Assembly: GCF_000716715.1 (NCBI RefSeq)
Contig: NZ_JNYJ01000036.1
Location: forward strand, 206,842 to 270,841
Source of the DNA: Dactylosporangium aurantiacum
Lineage (GTDB): Bacteria > Actinomycetota > Actinomycetes > Mycobacteriales > Micromonosporaceae
Length of the DNA stretch: 64,000 nucleotides
Direction of reading: 5' to 3'
Every line of letters starts with the position of its first letter. Within the stretch, counting starts at the first letter, position 1. The position numbers were made by a program, and so were the translations under genes. Shown here piece by piece: positions 39,339-47,196 of this stretch. The notes below the pieces were generated by a model. The model was not told where the DNA came from, did no database searches, and saw nothing but the letters and a program-made list of their open reading frames with translations.

Positions 39339-40241
39339 ATGCGACCCCCGGACGCTGAACCTCTGTTGGTCCGCCCCTACGTACGCCTGGTCGAGCAACA
39401 GCACGCGGAAAGCTCGGCCGAGGAGCCCTGGGGCGGCGCGCCCGCGCCCACCGGCGAGCCCGACGACGGCGGCCGGCACGCGACGACGACCACCGACGTC
39501 CGGCAGGTCCTCGCCGGCGCGGATGCGGCGTTCCCGGTCCGCCGGAGCCGCCGGCGCATGCTGGCGGTCGGCTCGGGCGCGCTGGCGCTCGCGCTGGGCG
39601 CCGTCGTGCTCGCACTGAGCGTCAGCGACGGGCCCGCGGCCCCGGCCGCGGGCGGGGGCTGGCCGACGCCGCCGAAGGGTGGCCTCTTCGCCACCGCCGC
39701 CGTCCCGGGGTCGGCGGCGGCGAGCACGCAGGCGAGCACGCAGGCCGCGGCGACCGCGACGCCATCCGGCGCGGCGCAGCCCTCACTGTCCGGGGCGGCT
39801 CCCTCGGATGCCGCCGCGGCGGACACCGCGTCCGTGGGCAGCGATCCGCCCGCCGCGTCCGCGCTGCCGCTGGACATCCAGCCCCGCACGGGCCGGATCA
39901 CCGGCGCCACCGGGCTGTGCCTCGACGGCAACGGCGCCACGGACGGGGGCGACAGGATCCGCAGGTGGGACTGCAACAACACCTCCGGCCAGGCGTGGAC
40001 CGTGGCGGACGACGGCACCGTCCGGACCCTCGGCCGTTGCCTGCAGGCCTCGGGCGACCAGCCCCAGCTGCGCACCTGCGATGGCGGACCGGCCCAGCGC
40101 TGGCGGTCGGGGCCCGGGGGCGCCCTGGTGAGTCAGGCGTCGGGGCTGTGCCTCGGCGGCACGGACAATGCGGACAGCAGGGCACCACAGCGCATGGCCA
40201 CCTGTAACCAGTCGGATGCGCAGCGATGGACGCTGCCGTAG
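39339..40241 (+). CDS. Membrane-anchored ricin-type beta-trefoil lectin
   Basis: 300 residues. A cytoplasmic N-terminus of about 70 residues is followed by one helix (MLAVGSGALALALGAVVLAL, 74-93), then a Ser/Thr/Ala linker of about 80 residues and a beta-trefoil of about 115. QxW repeats occur as GQAWTV, AQRWRS and AQRWTL, with GLCLDGNG and GRCLQASG as repeat starts. Ricin-type domains bind sugars, so this is probably a surface carbohydrate-binding protein with its lectin outside. No catalytic domain is present. Leaderless start inferred. Confidence 0.88.
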   Translation: MRPPDAEPLLVRPYVRLVEQQHAESSAEEPWGGAPAPTGEPDDGGRHATTTTDVRQVLAGADAAFPVRRSRRRMLAVGSGALALALGAVVLALSVSDGPAAPAAGGGWPTPPKGGLFATAAVPGSAAASTQASTQAAATATPSGAAQPSLSGAAPSDAAAADTASVGSDPPAASALPLDIQPRTGRITGATGLCLDGNGATDGGDRIRRWDCNNTSGQAWTVADDGTVRTLGRCLQASGDQPQLRTCDGGPAQRWRSGPGGALVSQASGLCLGGTDNADSRAPQRMATCNQSDAQRWTLP

Positions 40242-42044: not shown

Positions 42045-43103
42045 CTAATTGCCGTAGGTGATGACCATCGGTGCCGGCTGCAGGGCCATGACCTGCTCCG
42101 GGGTCATCAACTTGTTCTTCGACTCCAGCTCGTAGAAGATCTTAAATCCGCCGTACCTGAAGTTCTGGAACCGCTGCATGCCCTGGGCGACCCATTTGCC
42201 GTACTGTTCGGTTTTCACCTCGATGTCGCCGGGCCAGCCACCCACCGAGTCGACGTGGATCACCACGTCCACCCGGCTGTCATTGCGCAGGTTCCGCTTG
42301 TCGGCGATGATCGCCGCCCCCGGGTTGTAGGGATTGGCCAGGTCGTCGCCGTCCGGCCGGTACTGGTGAATCATGAAGATCTTCCGGGGCACCTGGTACT
42401 CCGCCGGCATCTGTGCGACCGCACTGATGAGCGGGTTGAGGTCGGCGGCGCGCACATTGGACAAGTGGACGCCCGGCACGCCGTTGTGCCGCGGGAACAT
42501 CCATTCCGGATCCACGGCGACGTGCACGAACGGCAGCTTGAGATAGGGCCGGAAGAAGTTCAGCTCGGTCACCGGGTCGGACCAGCCGAAGTTGAGGTCC
42601 AAAAACAGCAGCAGGTTGTTCTTCCGGCAGAATTCGACGTACCGGTCGATGGTCGGCGCGTCCACCCGGTGGCTGTACGTGCCGGCCGGCCCGGGCTTCC
42701 TGTCCGGCACGCTGACGACCAGGTCGATCCCGGCCAGCACCGGATGCGCCGGGTCGAGCTGCTGATATACCGCCGCCTGCCGCCTGAGCCGGGCGAGCAT
42801 CGCGTCGGTGATCTCGTGTGCCGGGCCGGTGGCCGCGGCCCCGGGCACCGCGTAGAAGGCGACGACCCGGTTTCGCGGCAGCGCCGCACCGGCGTCCGGG
42901 TCGAATGACGGCGACGGTGCCGGCGACGCGGTTGGCGTGGATATCGCCGTGGAAGCGGCCGGCGTTTTGCCGGCACTGCCCTTCATGACGTAACTGACGA
43001 TCGACACGATCATGACCAGCGCCAGCACTGCCGGCACGATCATGATCGTGCGGTTCAGCCGGCGTCCTTTCGGCGCATGAGAATGCGGTGGCGAATGACT
43101 CAT
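42045..43103 (-). CDS. Exported membrane-anchored protein of unknown function
   Basis: 352 residues from the ATG at 43103; upstream in-frame codons exist but give a poor N-terminus. A cytoplasmic N-terminus with PPHSHAPKGRRLNR precedes one membrane helix at about 20-40 (MIVPAVLALVMIVSIVSYVM), a Ser/Thr/Pro linker, then about 270 residues. Segments GIDLVVSVPDRKPGPAGTYS, FCRKNNLLLFLDLNFGW, VHVAVDPEWMFPRHNGVPG and KIFMIHQYRP alternate strands and acidic/aromatic residues like a TIM-barrel hydrolase, but I do not recognise the family. Divergent from the glycosyltransferase operon, with a palindrome between, so a role in the same surface process is a reasonable guess. Confidence 0.75.
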   Translation of the reverse strand: MSHSPPHSHAPKGRRLNRTIMIVPAVLALVMIVSIVSYVMKGSAGKTPAASTAISTPTASPAPSPSFDPDAGAALPRNRVVAFYAVPGAAATGPAHEITDAMLARLRRQAAVYQQLDPAHPVLAGIDLVVSVPDRKPGPAGTYSHRVDAPTIDRYVEFCRKNNLLLFLDLNFGWSDPVTELNFFRPYLKLPFVHVAVDPEWMFPRHNGVPGVHLSNVRAADLNPLISAVAQMPAEYQVPRKIFMIHQYRPDGDDLANPYNPGAAIIADKRNLRNDSRVDVVIHVDSVGGWPGDIEVKTEQYGKWVAQGMQRFQNFRYGGFKIFYELESKNKLMTPEQVMALQPAPMVITYGN

Positions 43104-43549
43104 GGAGCAGGTGTCCTTCGGTTCTGAAGTCGCACACGAATCGCAGCCCTGCGAGTCCAAACGTGCACTTGCTTCAGTCCGGCCCCACCCGAGATGCCGG
43201 CGTCGAATCCCCGCTACGCACCGCATCAAACCACCGGCTCACGGTAACCGCACCTTCACCCGGAAACGGGTCGCCGTATGAGTTCACGAGTGGCGCGTCG
43301 TCATTTGCCCGCCGTACCCTTCGACCGCCGATGATTCATGCACCGGATTTCACCCGGGTGAAACGGCACCGGATGCCTTGCGATTACGCCACCGCCGCGA
43401 GCAAAGTCGACTCCGCAACCCGTCATGCATTCGCGTCCGTCGTGCCGCCGGCCCGTCTCGAGTCGGCGATTGAGCGGTCACACGGACCCGCGGAGACCCC
43501 TTGAACAAAAAGGGCGTTGCCCGCACGAGCTTCGAAGGGCGATCCGGTC
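43104..43549. other. 446-base divergent control region
   Basis: Lies between the starts of the exported protein (left) and the glycosyltransferase (right). Less GC-rich than the genes. Holds the perfect palindrome at 43348-43363; no gene, and no clear -35/-10 pair, was found. Confidence 0.55.
43348..43363. promoter_or_regulatory. Perfect 16-bp palindrome TTTCACCCGGGTGAAA
   Basis: Fully self-complementary, in the divergent control region between the exported protein and the glycosyltransferase. The size and symmetry suit a dimeric repressor. No regulator gene is adjacent. Confidence 0.65.
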
Positions 43550-44773
43550 GTGCGCCTCAACCTGACCGACGACATCATTGACGTCGAGCGCGCCGCACCC
43601 TGGCCGAGCGAGAAGACCGACGGCGACCCCACCGTGGTCGTCCGCGCGTTCCCGATGCAACGGTCCCGCCATGACCGGCCCACCGCGAAGATCGTCGCCC
43701 TGGTTCCCGCGTACAACGAGTCCGCGACCATCGCCGGCACCATCCGGGCGCTGCGGCGGCAATGGTCCCCGCCGATCGACCGGATCGTCGTCGTGCCGAA
43801 CAACTGCACCGACGACACCGCCGAGGTCGCCGCCGCCGGCGGCGCCGAGGTGTACGAGTTCCCCGGCCACAACCCGCACAAGAAGGCCGGCGCGCTGAAC
43901 TGGGCGGTCCTCAACCTGCTGCCCGGGCTGGCCGACGACGACTTCCTGCTCGTCACCGACGCCGACAGCCTCCTGCACCCCGACTTCACCCAACATGCCG
44001 TCAGAGCGCTGACCAGGCCCCGCGTCGGGCACCGCTGGCGGCGGCCCGTCGGCGCCGCCTGCGCCAGCTTCCACACGTCACGCGACGGCACCACCCTGCT
44101 CGACCGGCTGCAGCGCAACGAGTACACCCGGTTCGCGCGGCAGGTGGCCCGGCGCATGGACAAGGCACTCGTGCTGTCCGGCGTCGCGACCCTGCTCCAG
44201 GTGCGGGTGATCCGGGACGTGCTCATCGCCCGCGGTCAGGGCCGGCTCCCCGGTTACCGCGGCGAGCTGTACCACCGCGACACCGCCACCGAGGACATCG
44301 AGCTGACGTTCGCGATCCAGGCGCTCGGCTACCGGCCGGTGGCACCGTCGAAGGCGACGGCGACCACGGAGTCGATGCCGACCTGGCAGGCGTTGAAGGA
44401 TCAGCGGCTCCGCTGGCAGCGGGGCATGCTCGACAGCCTCCGCCTGTACGGGATGAACCGGCGCACGTTCGGCACCTGGGTCCGCCAGGTCGCGATCTAC
44501 GCCGGCTCTCTGGTGGCGCCGGTGTATCTCACGTTCCTGGCCTTGCTCCTCACCATGACGGGCAGCCTGCCGTTCGACCCGCGATGGCTGCCGTTGACGG
44601 GCCTCTTCCTGCTCGAGCGGGTCTGGACGGTCCGGTCGAACCGCCCCGGTGACATCGCGCTGGCGGCGGCGCTGCTGCCCGAGTGGTTGTTCGAACAATG
44701 GCGCGCCGGCGTGTACTGGCTGGCGGTGTGGAAGACGGTCCGCGGTGCTGACCGTGAATGGATCAATCCCTGA
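43550..44773 (+). CDS. Family 2 membrane glycosyltransferase
   Basis: 407 residues from the GTG at 43550; a TTG eleven codons earlier is the alternative. GT-A domain: VALVPAYNESATIAGTIRAL, nucleotide/metal DAD at 137-139 (LLVTDADSLLHPDF), acceptor-base TED at 247-249 (TATEDIELTF), and the QRLRW motif at 285-289, all as in processive beta-glycosyltransferases such as cellulose and hyaluronan synthases. Hydrophobic stretches follow at about 315-360. It probably makes or exports a beta-linked surface polysaccharide. The next gene, 12 bases later, is an LPxTG microprotein. Confidence 0.9.
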   Translation: MRLNLTDDIIDVERAAPWPSEKTDGDPTVVVRAFPMQRSRHDRPTAKIVALVPAYNESATIAGTIRALRRQWSPPIDRIVVVPNNCTDDTAEVAAAGGAEVYEFPGHNPHKKAGALNWAVLNLLPGLADDDFLLVTDADSLLHPDFTQHAVRALTRPRVGHRWRRPVGAACASFHTSRDGTTLLDRLQRNEYTRFARQVARRMDKALVLSGVATLLQVRVIRDVLIARGQGRLPGYRGELYHRDTATEDIELTFAIQALGYRPVAPSKATATTESMPTWQALKDQRLRWQRGMLDSLRLYGMNRRTFGTWVRQVAIYAGSLVAPVYLTFLALLLTMTGSLPFDPRWLPLTGLFLLERVWTVRSNRPGDIALAAALLPEWLFEQWRAGVYWLAVWKTVRGADREWINP

Positions 44774-44785
44774 GGAGGAATGCAC

Positions 44786-44944
44786 ATGTACGAAGGAAGC
44801 GTCGTCGGTGCGGCCGGCACCGGTGTCGCGACGCTGCCGGTGACCGGTCTGTCGATCGGCTGGCAGCTGGTCCTCGCCGCCACACTGATCATGGGCGGCT
44901 TCGCGTTGCTCCGGTTGTCACCCCGGGTCCGGCGGCATCGCTGA
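44786..44944 (+). CDS. 52-residue LPxTG sorting-signal microprotein
   Basis: Not an accidental frame: TGAGGAGGAA, the glycosyltransferase stop plus a strong ribosome site, precedes the ATG by five bases. The sequence MYEGSVVGAAGTGVATLPVT then GLSIGWQLVLAATLIMGGFA and LLRLSPRVRRHR shows a short hydrophilic start, LPVTG at residues 17-21, a hydrophobic helix and a positive tail. This is exactly a sortase cell-wall sorting signal, but with no signal peptide or passenger domain. It may be an acceptor, a substrate for modification or a regulator. No sortase is in the window. Confidence 0.75.
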   Translation: MYEGSVVGAAGTGVATLPVTGLSIGWQLVLAATLIMGGFALLRLSPRVRRHR

Positions 44945-45267: not shown

Positions 45268-47196
45268 GTGCCCGCACTGGAAGACGAGCTCGCCGCTGAG
45301 CGAGCGCACCTGGAAGCATCCCGTAAAGCGCTCCGCAGGATGCGGGAGCATGCGGAGGACCTGTTCTCGACCGGGGATCAGGTGGCGGGAGACCCATTCG
45401 CGGCGGAGACGCTGGGACGGCATCTGGCCCGCAGGATCGCCGAGCTGGCGGACAGCCCCGACACGCCGCTGTTCTTCGGCCGGCTGGACATCGAGGAAGA
45501 GCGGTTCCACGTGGGGCGGCGGCACGTCACCGACGTGGCCGGTGAGCCGATGGTGCTGGACTGGCGGGCGCCGGTGTCCCGGAAGTTCTACCAGGCCAGT
45601 GTCAAGGACCCGCAGGACGTGCGGACCCGCCGGCGGTTCGGGTTCGTCAAGGGGGCACTGACCAGCTTCGAGGACGAGCACCTGCAGGCCGGGGAGGAGC
45701 TCGGCACCGCCAGCCGGATCCTGCTGGAGGAGATCGAGCGGCCGCGTGTCGGGCCGATGCGGGACATCGTCGCCACGATCCAGCCGGAGCAGGACGAGCT
45801 GGTGCGCGCCGAGCTGGACGAGTCGATCTGCGTGCAGGGCGCGCCCGGCACCGGGAAGACCGCGGTGGGGCTGCATCGGGCGGCGTATCTGCTGTACCTG
45901 CACCGCGAGCGGCTCAAGCGGTCCGGTGTGCTGATCGTGGGGCCGAACAGCGCGTTCCTGAGCTACATCGCCAGCGTGCTGCCGGCCCTCGGGGAGATCG
46001 AGGTGCAGCAGTCGACGATCGACGGCCTCCTCGGTACCGTCGCGACGGCCACCGACACCGCGGCGGCCGCCGAGGTGAAGCACGACCCGCGGATGGCCAC
46101 GGTGCTGGCGCGGCGGCTCAACGGCAAGATCCGCAAGCCGGAGGCGCCGCTGACCGTGTCCGACGGGTCCTATCGGTGGCGGGTGTCGACGGAGGCGCTG
46201 CGGCGGGTCGTGGACGACGTGCGACGGGAGGCGCCGCCGTACGGGATCGGCCGGGAGCGGGTCAGGGCGCGGATCGTGTCGCTGCTGATGCGGCAGTCGG
46301 AGGCGCGCCGCGGCGACTCGCCGAGCGAGGCCTGGCAGCGCCGGATGGGCCGGTCGCAGCCGGTCGTCGAGGTGCTCGACCACGCGTGGCCGGCGGTCAC
46401 CGCGGAGCAGCTGGTGTTCGAGGTGCTCAGCGACCCGGCCGACGAGCTGCTGGAGCCGGCCGAGCAGGCGGCGATCGCCTGGGCGAAGCCGCCGAAGACC
46501 GCGCGGTCCGCGAAGTGGACGGCGGCGGATGCGGTACTGATCGACGAGGCCGCCGGGTTGATCGACCGGGTGCCCTCGTTCGGCCACGTGGTGCTGGACG
46601 AGGCGCAGGACCTGTCGCCGATGCAGGCGCGGGTGATCGCGCGGCGCTCCGAGCACGGCTCGATCACCCTGCTCGGCGATCTCGCCCAGGGCACGGCGCC
46701 GTGGGCGGCCCGGGACTGGCGGACGCTGCTGGCGCACCTGGGCAAGCCGGAGGCGCGGGTGGTGCCGCTGACGACCGGGTTCCGGGTGCCGGCCGCGGTC
46801 GTCGCGCTGGCCAACCGGCTGCTGCCGGCGCTGGGGGTGGACGTGCCGGAGGCGCGGTCCCTGCGCACCGACGGGGCGCTCACGATCGGGGCGACGCCGC
46901 TGCGGGACGCGGTCCGCGACGCCCTGCGGTTCGAGGGCTCCATCGGGGTGATCGCGGCCGACGCGACGGTGCCGCTGATCGCCGCCGGGATCGAGCACGA
47001 GCGGGTGACGGTGCTGCCGGCGAGCCTCGCGAAGGGTCTCGAGTACGACCACGTGATCGTCGTGGAGCCGGCCGACATCGTGGCGGCCGAACCCCGCGGG
47101 CTCAACCGGTTGTTCGTGGTCCTGACGCGAGCGGTTTCCCGCCTGGATGTGTTACACGAGCGTCCGCTTCCTCCACCGTTGGATAGGGTTTCGTGA
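45268..47196 (+). CDS. helR: HelD/HelR-family RNA polymerase recycling ATPase
   Basis: 642 residues, GTG at 45268 with AAGGAAA upstream. UvrD-like superfamily 1: the Walker A GAPGTGKTAVGLHRAAYL is at 191-198 and VVLDEAQDLSPMQARVIA is Walker B. The N-terminus starts with a charged coiled coil (AAERAHLEASRKALRRMREH) that enters the RNA polymerase secondary channel in this family, then FFGRLDIEEERFHVGRRHVT and LDWRAPVSRKFYQ, both family marks. HelD/HelR dislodges stalled RNA polymerase; some actinomycete copies give rifampicin resistance. Rifampicin function here is not shown by the sequence. Confidence 0.88.
   Translation: MPALEDELAAERAHLEASRKALRRMREHAEDLFSTGDQVAGDPFAAETLGRHLARRIAELADSPDTPLFFGRLDIEEERFHVGRRHVTDVAGEPMVLDWRAPVSRKFYQASVKDPQDVRTRRRFGFVKGALTSFEDEHLQAGEELGTASRILLEEIERPRVGPMRDIVATIQPEQDELVRAELDESICVQGAPGTGKTAVGLHRAAYLLYLHRERLKRSGVLIVGPNSAFLSYIASVLPALGEIEVQQSTIDGLLGTVATATDTAAAAEVKHDPRMATVLARRLNGKIRKPEAPLTVSDGSYRWRVSTEALRRVVDDVRREAPPYGIGRERVRARIVSLLMRQSEARRGDSPSEAWQRRMGRSQPVVEVLDHAWPAVTAEQLVFEVLSDPADELLEPAEQAAIAWAKPPKTARSAKWTAADAVLIDEAAGLIDRVPSFGHVVLDEAQDLSPMQARVIARRSEHGSITLLGDLAQGTAPWAARDWRTLLAHLGKPEARVVPLTTGFRVPAAVVALANRLLPALGVDVPEARSLRTDGALTIGATPLRDAVRDALRFEGSIGVIAADATVPLIAAGIEHERVTVLPASLAKGLEYDHVIVVEPADIVAAEPRGLNRLFVVLTRAVSRLDVLHERPLPPPLDRVS

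What the first reader, a model, noticed from the sequence alone, without database searches (positions are those of the whole stretch)
44786..44944. A stand-alone 52-residue LPxTG signal follows a beta-glycosyltransferase
Seen: a strong ribosome site, then a protein that is only LPVTG, a helix and RVRRHR, without signal peptide or passenger. Known: sortases cut LPxTG between Thr and Gly and transfer it to a nucleophile. Inference: the peptide may be anchored or modified by, or be a membrane partner of, the adjacent family 2 glycosyltransferase, so a minimal surface-glycan system could exist here.
Basis: partly seen in the sequence, partly recalled or inferred. Interest (0 to 1): 0.72.

Follow-up and report, generated by a model that had tools for sequence, protein, structure and literature searches.

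The report
Sortase-tagged micropeptide paired with a glycosyltransferase
A 52-residue peptide that is little more than a cell-wall attachment tag is a real, conserved partner of a sugar-chain-building enzyme in many actinobacteria and some of their viruses, and in some relatives a matching attachment enzyme is encoded next door, which hints at a compact way to fix a sugar polymer to the cell wall.

Summary
The 52-residue frame (44786-44944) has a well-placed ribosome site right behind a GT2 gene, evolves like a protein, and recurs behind orthologous GT2 genes: 4 of 7 genomes of the genus have both genes, 3 neither; 26 of 28 GT2 loci from the family sample carry it with a tag. It recurs across Actinomycetota and in 13 of 13 viral loci read.

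A sortase tag is well supported. L[PA]xTG (x = 14 residues) precedes one helix and a basic tail. In 8 of 88 such loci a class E sortase gene lies within 2 kb of the GT2, in two gene orders. In a lineage without L[PA]xTG, a class F sortase adjoins the GT2 in 16 of 16 testable loci, and the same place reads [AS]P[FW]xG (15 of 17).

The GT2 model has the hyaluronan/cellulose/chitin synthase fold. I infer that the microprotein couples the GT2's glycan to the wall; glycan on the tyrosine is untested. Some relatives have untagged partners. I found no description of the module.

The parts
43550..44773 (+). GT2 glycosyltransferase gene (407 aa from GTG 43550; start uncertain, the longest frame starts at TTG 43517), with DAD, TED and QRLRW motifs of processive GT2 enzymes
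44774..44779 (+). GGAGGA ribosome-binding site, directly after the GT2 stop codon, 6 nt before ATG 44786
   Evidence: read directly
44786..44944 (+). 52-aa microprotein gene
44786..44833 (+). 16-residue passenger with Tyr2 (its only tyrosine)
   Evidence: family comparison; pLDDT under 50 in the fusion model (residues 367-391)
44834..44848 (+). LPVTG sorting pentapeptide (residues 17-21)
44849..44917 (+). single hydrophobic helix (residues 22-44)
   Evidence: helix 394-416 of the fusion model; blocks 401-420 at pLDDT 89-91
44918..44941 (+). basic tail SPRVRRHR

Best explanation
The 52-aa protein is a dedicated microprotein partner of the adjacent processive-type GT2 synthase and is itself a minimal sortase substrate. 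Shown by comparison: GT2 and microprotein recur as a two-gene unit (sometimes with a sortase gene) in otherwise different neighbourhoods; the microprotein has a short Tyr-bearing passenger, a sorting pentapeptide that differs with the class of sortase encoded beside it, one hydrophobic helix and a basic tail. Inferred: translational coupling delivers it to the GT2; it inserts with its N terminus outside; its helix packs on the GT2, which has few helices of its own; a sortase (in this genome one encoded elsewhere, class E by kind of tag) cuts Thr|Gly and joins the passenger to peptidoglycan precursor. The passenger, perhaps through its tyrosine, carries or caps the GT2's glycan, so the sugar chain ends up fixed to the wall.
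For: Co-occurrence in the genus: both genes in 4 genomes, neither in 3. 26 of 28 family GT2 loci carry the microprotein with the tag; the window and 14 enlarged loci share little else. L[PA]xTG in 86 of 117 distinct microproteins with Tyr at residues 2-4 and in 0 of 30 without; x takes 14 different residues. 43 of 43 genomes with the tag have a class E sortase match, against 25 of 31 without (Fisher p 0.004, kinship not corrected). Class E sortase within 2 kb of the GT2 in 8 loci, all tagged, in two gene orders; 4 of them in the 75-genome survey against 0.13 expected. Class F sortase beside the GT2 in 16 of 16 testable type II loci, whose tag sits in the same register. SrtE1 of S. coelicolor cleaves both LPETG and LAETG (passages of PMC5148588). 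13 of 13 viral loci read keep pair and tag. The GT2 model has the hyaluronan, cellulose and chitin synthase fold.
Against: No experiment shows sortase cleavage or any glycan on the peptide. 80 of 88 type I loci have no class E or F sortase in the DNA searched (median flank 1.5 kb a side), the window among them. 38 of 156 distinct GT2s were labelled type III (LLPxS-like, no tag), and none of the 6 genomes without a class E match has L[PA]xTG, so the GT2 gene persists without a tagged partner. 13 of 156 fit no type, some with Tyr but no tag. One metagenomic relative reads LQLTG. A cytosolic GT2 active site and an outside passenger are a topological difficulty for direct glycosylation.
Confidence: 0.55

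Rival explanations
1. The microprotein is mainly a transmembrane subunit that completes or activates the GT2 (as IcaD/PgaD do for poly-GlcNAc synthases, recalled); sortase cutting only matures or retires it, and no glycan is attached to the peptide.
For: Type III partners without the tag still follow the GT2. Confident helix in both fusion models. The alignments to yeast Chs1 (8k3u) cover 377 and 383 residues, more than the 367 and 358 residues of the GT2 part, so they take in some of the rest. NCBIfam's best GT2 hit is PgaC/IcaA, far below its cut-off (53 of 422 bits).
Against: Does not explain why a tag that differs with the neighbouring sortase class and a single N-terminal Tyr go together.
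Confidence: 0.28
2. The passenger is simply a wall-anchored or released peptide (a signal or surface decoration) that happens to share an operon with the GT2.
For: Self-contained sortase substrate layout; passengers of 4-22 residues.
Against: The pairing recurs across genera and in viruses, and survives a change of gene order.
Confidence: 0.09
3. The pentapeptide is a helix cap and has nothing to do with sortase.
For: Tag absent in type III and in the 13 'other' loci; most type I loci have no sortase close by.
Against: Sortase genes beside the GT2 in 8 class E and 16 class F loci, with the tag differing by class; free x position with L, P/A, T, G fixed.
Confidence: 0.05
4. The frame is not translated.
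For: No expression data were available.
Against: dN below dS in 8 of 8 pairs, good ribosome site, conserved frame.
Confidence: 0.03

Closest known systems
Class E sortase substrates (LAXTG proteins such as long chaplins and CwpA/CwpB)
   Same: Tag, helix and basic tail; class E sortase in the same genomes; SrtE1 accepts LPETG and LAETG (passages of PMC5148588); CwpA, CwpB and long chaplins seen in passages of PMC13251363
   Different: Known ones are exported proteins with a signal peptide (recalled) and a folded passenger; here no signal peptide is seen and the passenger has 4-22 residues, tied to a GT2 gene
NCBIfam NF058583 'LAXTG motif-containing small protein' (LAXTG_small_WW)
   Same: Nearest named family: the window protein scores 33.3 bits over profile positions 6-50 of 54; 7 of 10 chosen relatives also hit it
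   Different: None of these reaches the cut-off of 65 bits (highest 37.5); a family name only, no system or function found
XrtG / Firmicu-CTERM system of Lactobacillales
   Same: Sorting enzyme, a protein with a sorting signal and associated glycosyltransferases together (one passage of PMC12854382); the window GT2 weakly hits the XrtG- and XrtP-associated glycosyltransferase models (36 and 27 bits)
   Different: Exosortase, not sortase; scores far below the cut-offs (364 and 520 bits); other phylum
PEP-CTERM / EpsH exosortase
   Same: Sorting signal genetically tied to exopolysaccharide genes (passages of PMC1569441)
   Different: Bacteria with an outer membrane, often many substrates with a signal peptide (same passages), no single GT2 partner
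Hyaluronan, cellulose and chitin synthases

Membership tests
Cell-wall sorting signal (sortase substrate) | Pentapeptide L-P/A-x-T-G | tested here: met
   LPVTG, residues 17-21; L, T, G invariant in the 17 aligned group-1 sequences
Cell-wall sorting signal (sortase substrate) | Hydrophobic segment and basic tail after it | tested here: met
   Helix 22-44, tail RVRRHR; mean net charge after the helix +3.4 over 88 members
Classical LPXTG surface protein | N-terminal signal peptide and exported passenger domain | tested here: not met
   Only 16 residues before the tag, by reading; no predictor run; so not filed as a classical surface protein
Sortase substrate | Cleaved Thr|Gly and joined to the wall | not testable with these tools
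   needs experiment
Class E sortase pathway | Class E sortase in the genome | tested here: met
   3 matches to NF033747 in the window's genome, best 234 bits, cut-off 160
Glycosyltransferase family 2, processive type | GT2 domain, DxD, TED, QxxRW | tested here: met
   PF13641 72 bits over cut-off 27; invariant columns in 26 sequences; processivity itself not tested
PgaC/IcaA poly-GlcNAc synthase | Score over the TIGR03937 cut-off | tested here: not met
   53 bits against 422.3
IcaD/PgaD accessory subunit | Family match of the small partner | tested here: inconclusive
   no Pfam hit; NCBIfam gives no such family for the window protein, but 52 residues is short for such tests
NF058583 LAXTG_small_WW | Score over 65 bits | tested here: not met
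   33.3 bits
XrtG or XrtP system | GT2 over the TIGR03111 or NF053846 cut-off | tested here: not met
   36.2 of 364 and 26.8 of 520 bits
XrtG or XrtP system | Exosortase in the locus | not tested
   exosortase was not searched for

The most novel reading that the evidence does not exclude
A peptide-primed, sortase-anchored polysaccharide: the GT2 starts its chain on the single N-terminal tyrosine of the microprotein, the growing chain leads the peptide out of the cell, and a sortase whose specificity has co-evolved with the tag fixes the glycopeptide to peptidoglycan. Phages carry GT2 and primer to recoat their host with the host's own sortase.
Probability: 0.25. Interest if true: 0.93.

Novelty: new variant of a known kind. 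Interest (0 to 1): 0.77.

Why it matters
It would be a route for tying a synthase-made glycan to the Gram-positive wall that does not use LCP ligases (recalled as the usual route), with three small parts: synthase, peptide and sortase. It is widespread, carried by phages, and the difference of tag beside class E and class F sortases offers natural variants for reading sortase specificity; a class F signal of the form [AS]P[FW]xG is proposed here. It may also explain some small 'LPXTG-motif cell wall-anchored' or 'hypothetical' proteins in databases that have no visible cargo (such names appear in the list).

Tried and rejected
A larger conserved gene cluster: not seen in Micromonosporaceae; in the window and 14 enlarged neighbourhoods no frame of 90 or more residues other than the GT2 recurred in more than 5 of 15 (the two that reached 5 lie antisense over the end of the GT2). 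Among the named loci a convergent secreted-looking protein lies behind the pair in 16 loci, Arthrobacter and close kin in the 13 that a stricter search lists; its example has no Pfam match. I had guessed a glycoside hydrolase and do not claim it.

'No tag means no sortase': rejected as a general rule, since 25 of 31 genomes without the tag still have a class E match and type II loci have class F next door. The 31 include 2 genomes in which no partner was found at all. A class F sortase also lies about 3.3 kb from a type I GT2 in L071, and a weak class F-like one beside L084 (LAMSG); class E ones lie 6-8 kb away in L204, L205, L206 and L216 and are not in the count of 8.

Plasmid spread: 1 of 72,556 plasmid records hits at E 1e-20, a 5.7 Mb Embleya replicon whose GT2 is also followed by an LAATG microprotein.

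Misses: L041/L116 (the same Virgisporangium locus, GT2 frame ends early), L110, L151, L169 (no partner found), L195 (streptococcal satellite phage GT2, no partner). L128/L190 have the partner upstream on the other strand; L142 and L207-L211 have a type III partner.

Biases: the start picker gave weight to Tyr at residues 2-4 (not to the tag), so Tyr counts are partly shaped by start choice; three 'Tyr' members without a tag (L170, L185, L186) are really type III, and the window itself was picked from ATG 44780 there. In one search the type II and III labels came from patterns written after seeing the sequences; one type III label (L224) looks doubtful. The GT2 tree was a quick one and its supports were not examined. 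The family and class searches scored only the 4-6 best candidates per genome, so presence counts are lower bounds; one search kept the best 80 of 549 relatives. One viral contig (L227/L231) has the same microprotein as phage RobsFeet, so the 13 viral loci are not all independent, and hosts of the viral contigs were not checked.

Literature: 10 searches gave no paper on a GT2-LPxTG microprotein module in their listings; only open-licence papers are held. PMC5148588, PMC13251363, PMC1569441, PMC7302621 and PMC12854382 were seen as passages; all others only as search listings.

Full report
What is there. The frame at 44786-44944 encodes a 52-residue protein. A Shine-Dalgarno sequence (GGAGGA, 44774-44779) follows the stop codon of a GT2 gene directly and ends 6 nt before ATG 44786. 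The protein reads: a 16-residue passenger beginning Met-Tyr, then LPVTG, a 23-residue helix and a basic tail.

It is a real gene. Strong matches in the genus lie in the window's genome and three congeners (84, 71 and 69% identity), and the GT2 is found in exactly these 4 of 7 genomes of the genus. In 8 of 8 close pairs that I compared, synonymous change exceeds amino-acid change, with ratios of about 0.05 to 0.34. A protein-database search gave 5 relatives, one from a named Dactylosporangium; one of the five reads LQLTG instead of LPxTG.

It belongs to the GT2. In 300 genomes sampled from the family, 27 have the GT2 at E 1e-40 or better, giving 28 loci, the window's included. In 26 of 28, a microprotein with L[PA]xTG starts between 1 nt before and 50 nt after the end of the GT2 stop; of the two misses, one GT2 frame ends early and the other has a type III partner. 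The window and 14 enlarged neighbourhoods share little else. A class-level sample had the GT2 in 49 of 394 genomes at E 1e-60, and a scan of named genomes kept the best 80 of 549 relatives, from Streptomyces, Nonomuraea, Actinomadura, Pseudonocardia, Amycolatopsis, Nocardioides, Microbacterium, Arthrobacter and others. One search examined 172 loci in all (count), with repeats of some genomes, 7 phage loci and 1 plasmid locus included.

Types of partner. One search sorted 156 distinct GT2s by their partner: 88 type I (L[PA]xTG), 17 type II, 38 type III, 13 other. Nine loci with a truncated, over-long, masked or repeated GT2, or no partner, were left out by name, then identical and short sequences. 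Among 147 distinct microproteins, 117 have Tyr at residues 2-4; 86 of these 117 carry L[PA]xTG and 0 of the 30 others do. The x takes 14 different residues; position 2 is Ala in 66 and Pro in 20; passengers are 4-22 residues. In 88 distinct type I members the passenger has one Tyr within residues 2-4 and none elsewhere; the start-picking script favoured such starts, so this count is partly shaped by it. Group 2, from Actinoplanes and relatives (names), has the tag after only 4-5 residues and a longer C terminus. Type III (LLPxS-like) has neither the N-terminal Tyr nor the Gly of the tag, and in six loci (L111, L207-L211) it is the start of a frame of at least 400 codons.

The sortase link. Class E sortases were sought in 78 genomes: 72 match at E 1e-10. 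Of 74 genomes with the GT2 (G542 dropped because its microprotein is masked), 43 have L[PA]xTG and all 43 have a class E match; of 31 without the tag, 25 have one (Fisher p 0.004; with the curated cut-off 42 of 43 against 20 of 31, p 0.0002). Kinship is not corrected for. More telling, a class E sortase gene is a close neighbour in 8 loci, all type I: directly behind GT2 and microprotein in L200, L201, L202, L203, L133 (Nocardioides terrigena) and L178 (an Actinomycetospora assembly), and beside the microprotein on the opposite strand, divergent from the GT2, in L128 and L190 (two Streptomyces). NCBIfam of the 8 class E over its cut-off; for the other 3 class E is the best model but below it. 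In the genome survey 4 such neighbours were seen where 0.13 were expected. The other 80 of 88 type I loci, the window among them, have no such neighbour in the DNA searched, a median of 1.5 kb on either side.

The tag differs with the sortase. A lineage of Nonomuraea, Microtetraspora, Planotetraspora, Actinomadura and unnamed kin (Streptosporangiales, recalled) lacks L[PA]xTG. All 16 of its loci whose flanks could be read have a class F sortase beside the GT2, in three gene arrangements (L136 is cut by the contig end); the 5 that I scanned pass the class F cut-off. Of 17 such microproteins, 15 read [AS]P[FW]xG and two read SPLFG and SSWLG, with the helix Trp 5 residues after the Gly in 17 of 17; in type I the Trp is at that distance in 38 of 88. 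I infer that this is the class F signal. One class-level locus with LAMSG (L084) also has a weak class F-like neighbour. On a quick GT2 tree the state of the adjacent sortase (none, E, F) needs at least 7 changes and the partner type at least 14, so the association does not look like one event; branch supports were not examined.

Phages. Twenty phage records have the GT2 at 29-45% identity. I opened seven; all six actinophages among them (RobsFeet, Merry, Count, Sparcetus, SilentRX, Cantare) have a 50-54 residue MY...LA[AYV]TG microprotein directly behind the GT2, and the streptococcal satellite phage does not. Seven viral contigs with enough downstream DNA have a tagged one too, one of them identical to RobsFeet's; an eighth is cut. 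[quoted passage not shown]

The enzyme. The GT2 has invariant DAD, TED and QRxRW positions in the 26-row alignment. A model of GT2 and microprotein read as one artificial chain has mean pLDDT 89 and pTM 0.87; the microprotein helix is confident and the passenger is not. Foldseek and VIA-align match hyaluronan, cellulose and chitin synthases and an archaeal mannosyltransferase. The alignments to yeast Chs1 (8k3u: 377 residues) cover more than the 367 residues of the GT2 part, so they take in some of the microprotein; a second model, of the Actinoplanes-type pair, gives the like (383 against 358). That is weak support for a subunit role, since the linker forces closeness.

Mechanism. Shown by comparison: conserved pairing, tag, sortase neighbours, tag differing with sortase class. 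Follows from established work: the class E sortase SrtE1 cuts both LPETG and LAETG at Thr-Gly (passages of PMC5148588). Inferred: insertion with the N terminus outside (basic tail inside), docking on the GT2, transfer of the passenger to the wall. Speculative: the tyrosine as the place where the glycan is joined. The main rival is that the helix is a subunit of the synthase and the sortase only matures it; type III partners argue that the helix has a role of its own.

Novelty. NCBIfam holds a narrow family, NF058583, 'LAXTG motif-containing small protein'; the window protein and 7 of 10 chosen relatives hit it below its cut-off. So a close kind of protein has been named. I found no description of the GT2-microprotein-sortase module in ten searches of an open-licence library (calls listed under Tried and rejected). 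The nearest systems by idea are XrtG with its associated glycosyltransferases and PEP-CTERM/exosortase.

Noticed in passing
window 42045-43229 (-): Divergent gene upstream of the GT2 for a protein of up to 394 aa with no Pfam match; no homologue in the 14 relatives' enlarged neighbourhoods.
   Followed up: partly
window 39339-40241 (+): Protein with a C-terminal ricin-type beta-trefoil lectin domain (PF00652, 77 bits).
   Followed up: no
window 45268-47196 (+): UvrD/AAA_19-like helicase downstream of the microprotein, after a gap of about 320 bp.
   Followed up: no
   Followed up: partly
L141 4300-5958 (-) and similar loci: Arthrobacter and close kin share a convergent, secreted-looking protein (553 aa in L141) behind the pair: 16 loci, 13 listed by a stricter search; the L141 one has no Pfam match.
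   Followed up: partly
L192 3707-3844 and 3854-5969: Phage RobsFeet has a second 45-residue membrane protein behind the microprotein, then genes annotated as sigma factor, ParB-like, another glycosyltransferase and UDP-glucose dehydrogenase.
   Followed up: no
L071 3767-4183: Class F sortase match about 3.3 kb from a type I GT2.
   Followed up: no
P0005: Metagenomic relative with LQLTG in place of LPxTG: either a broken or a variant tag.
   Followed up: no
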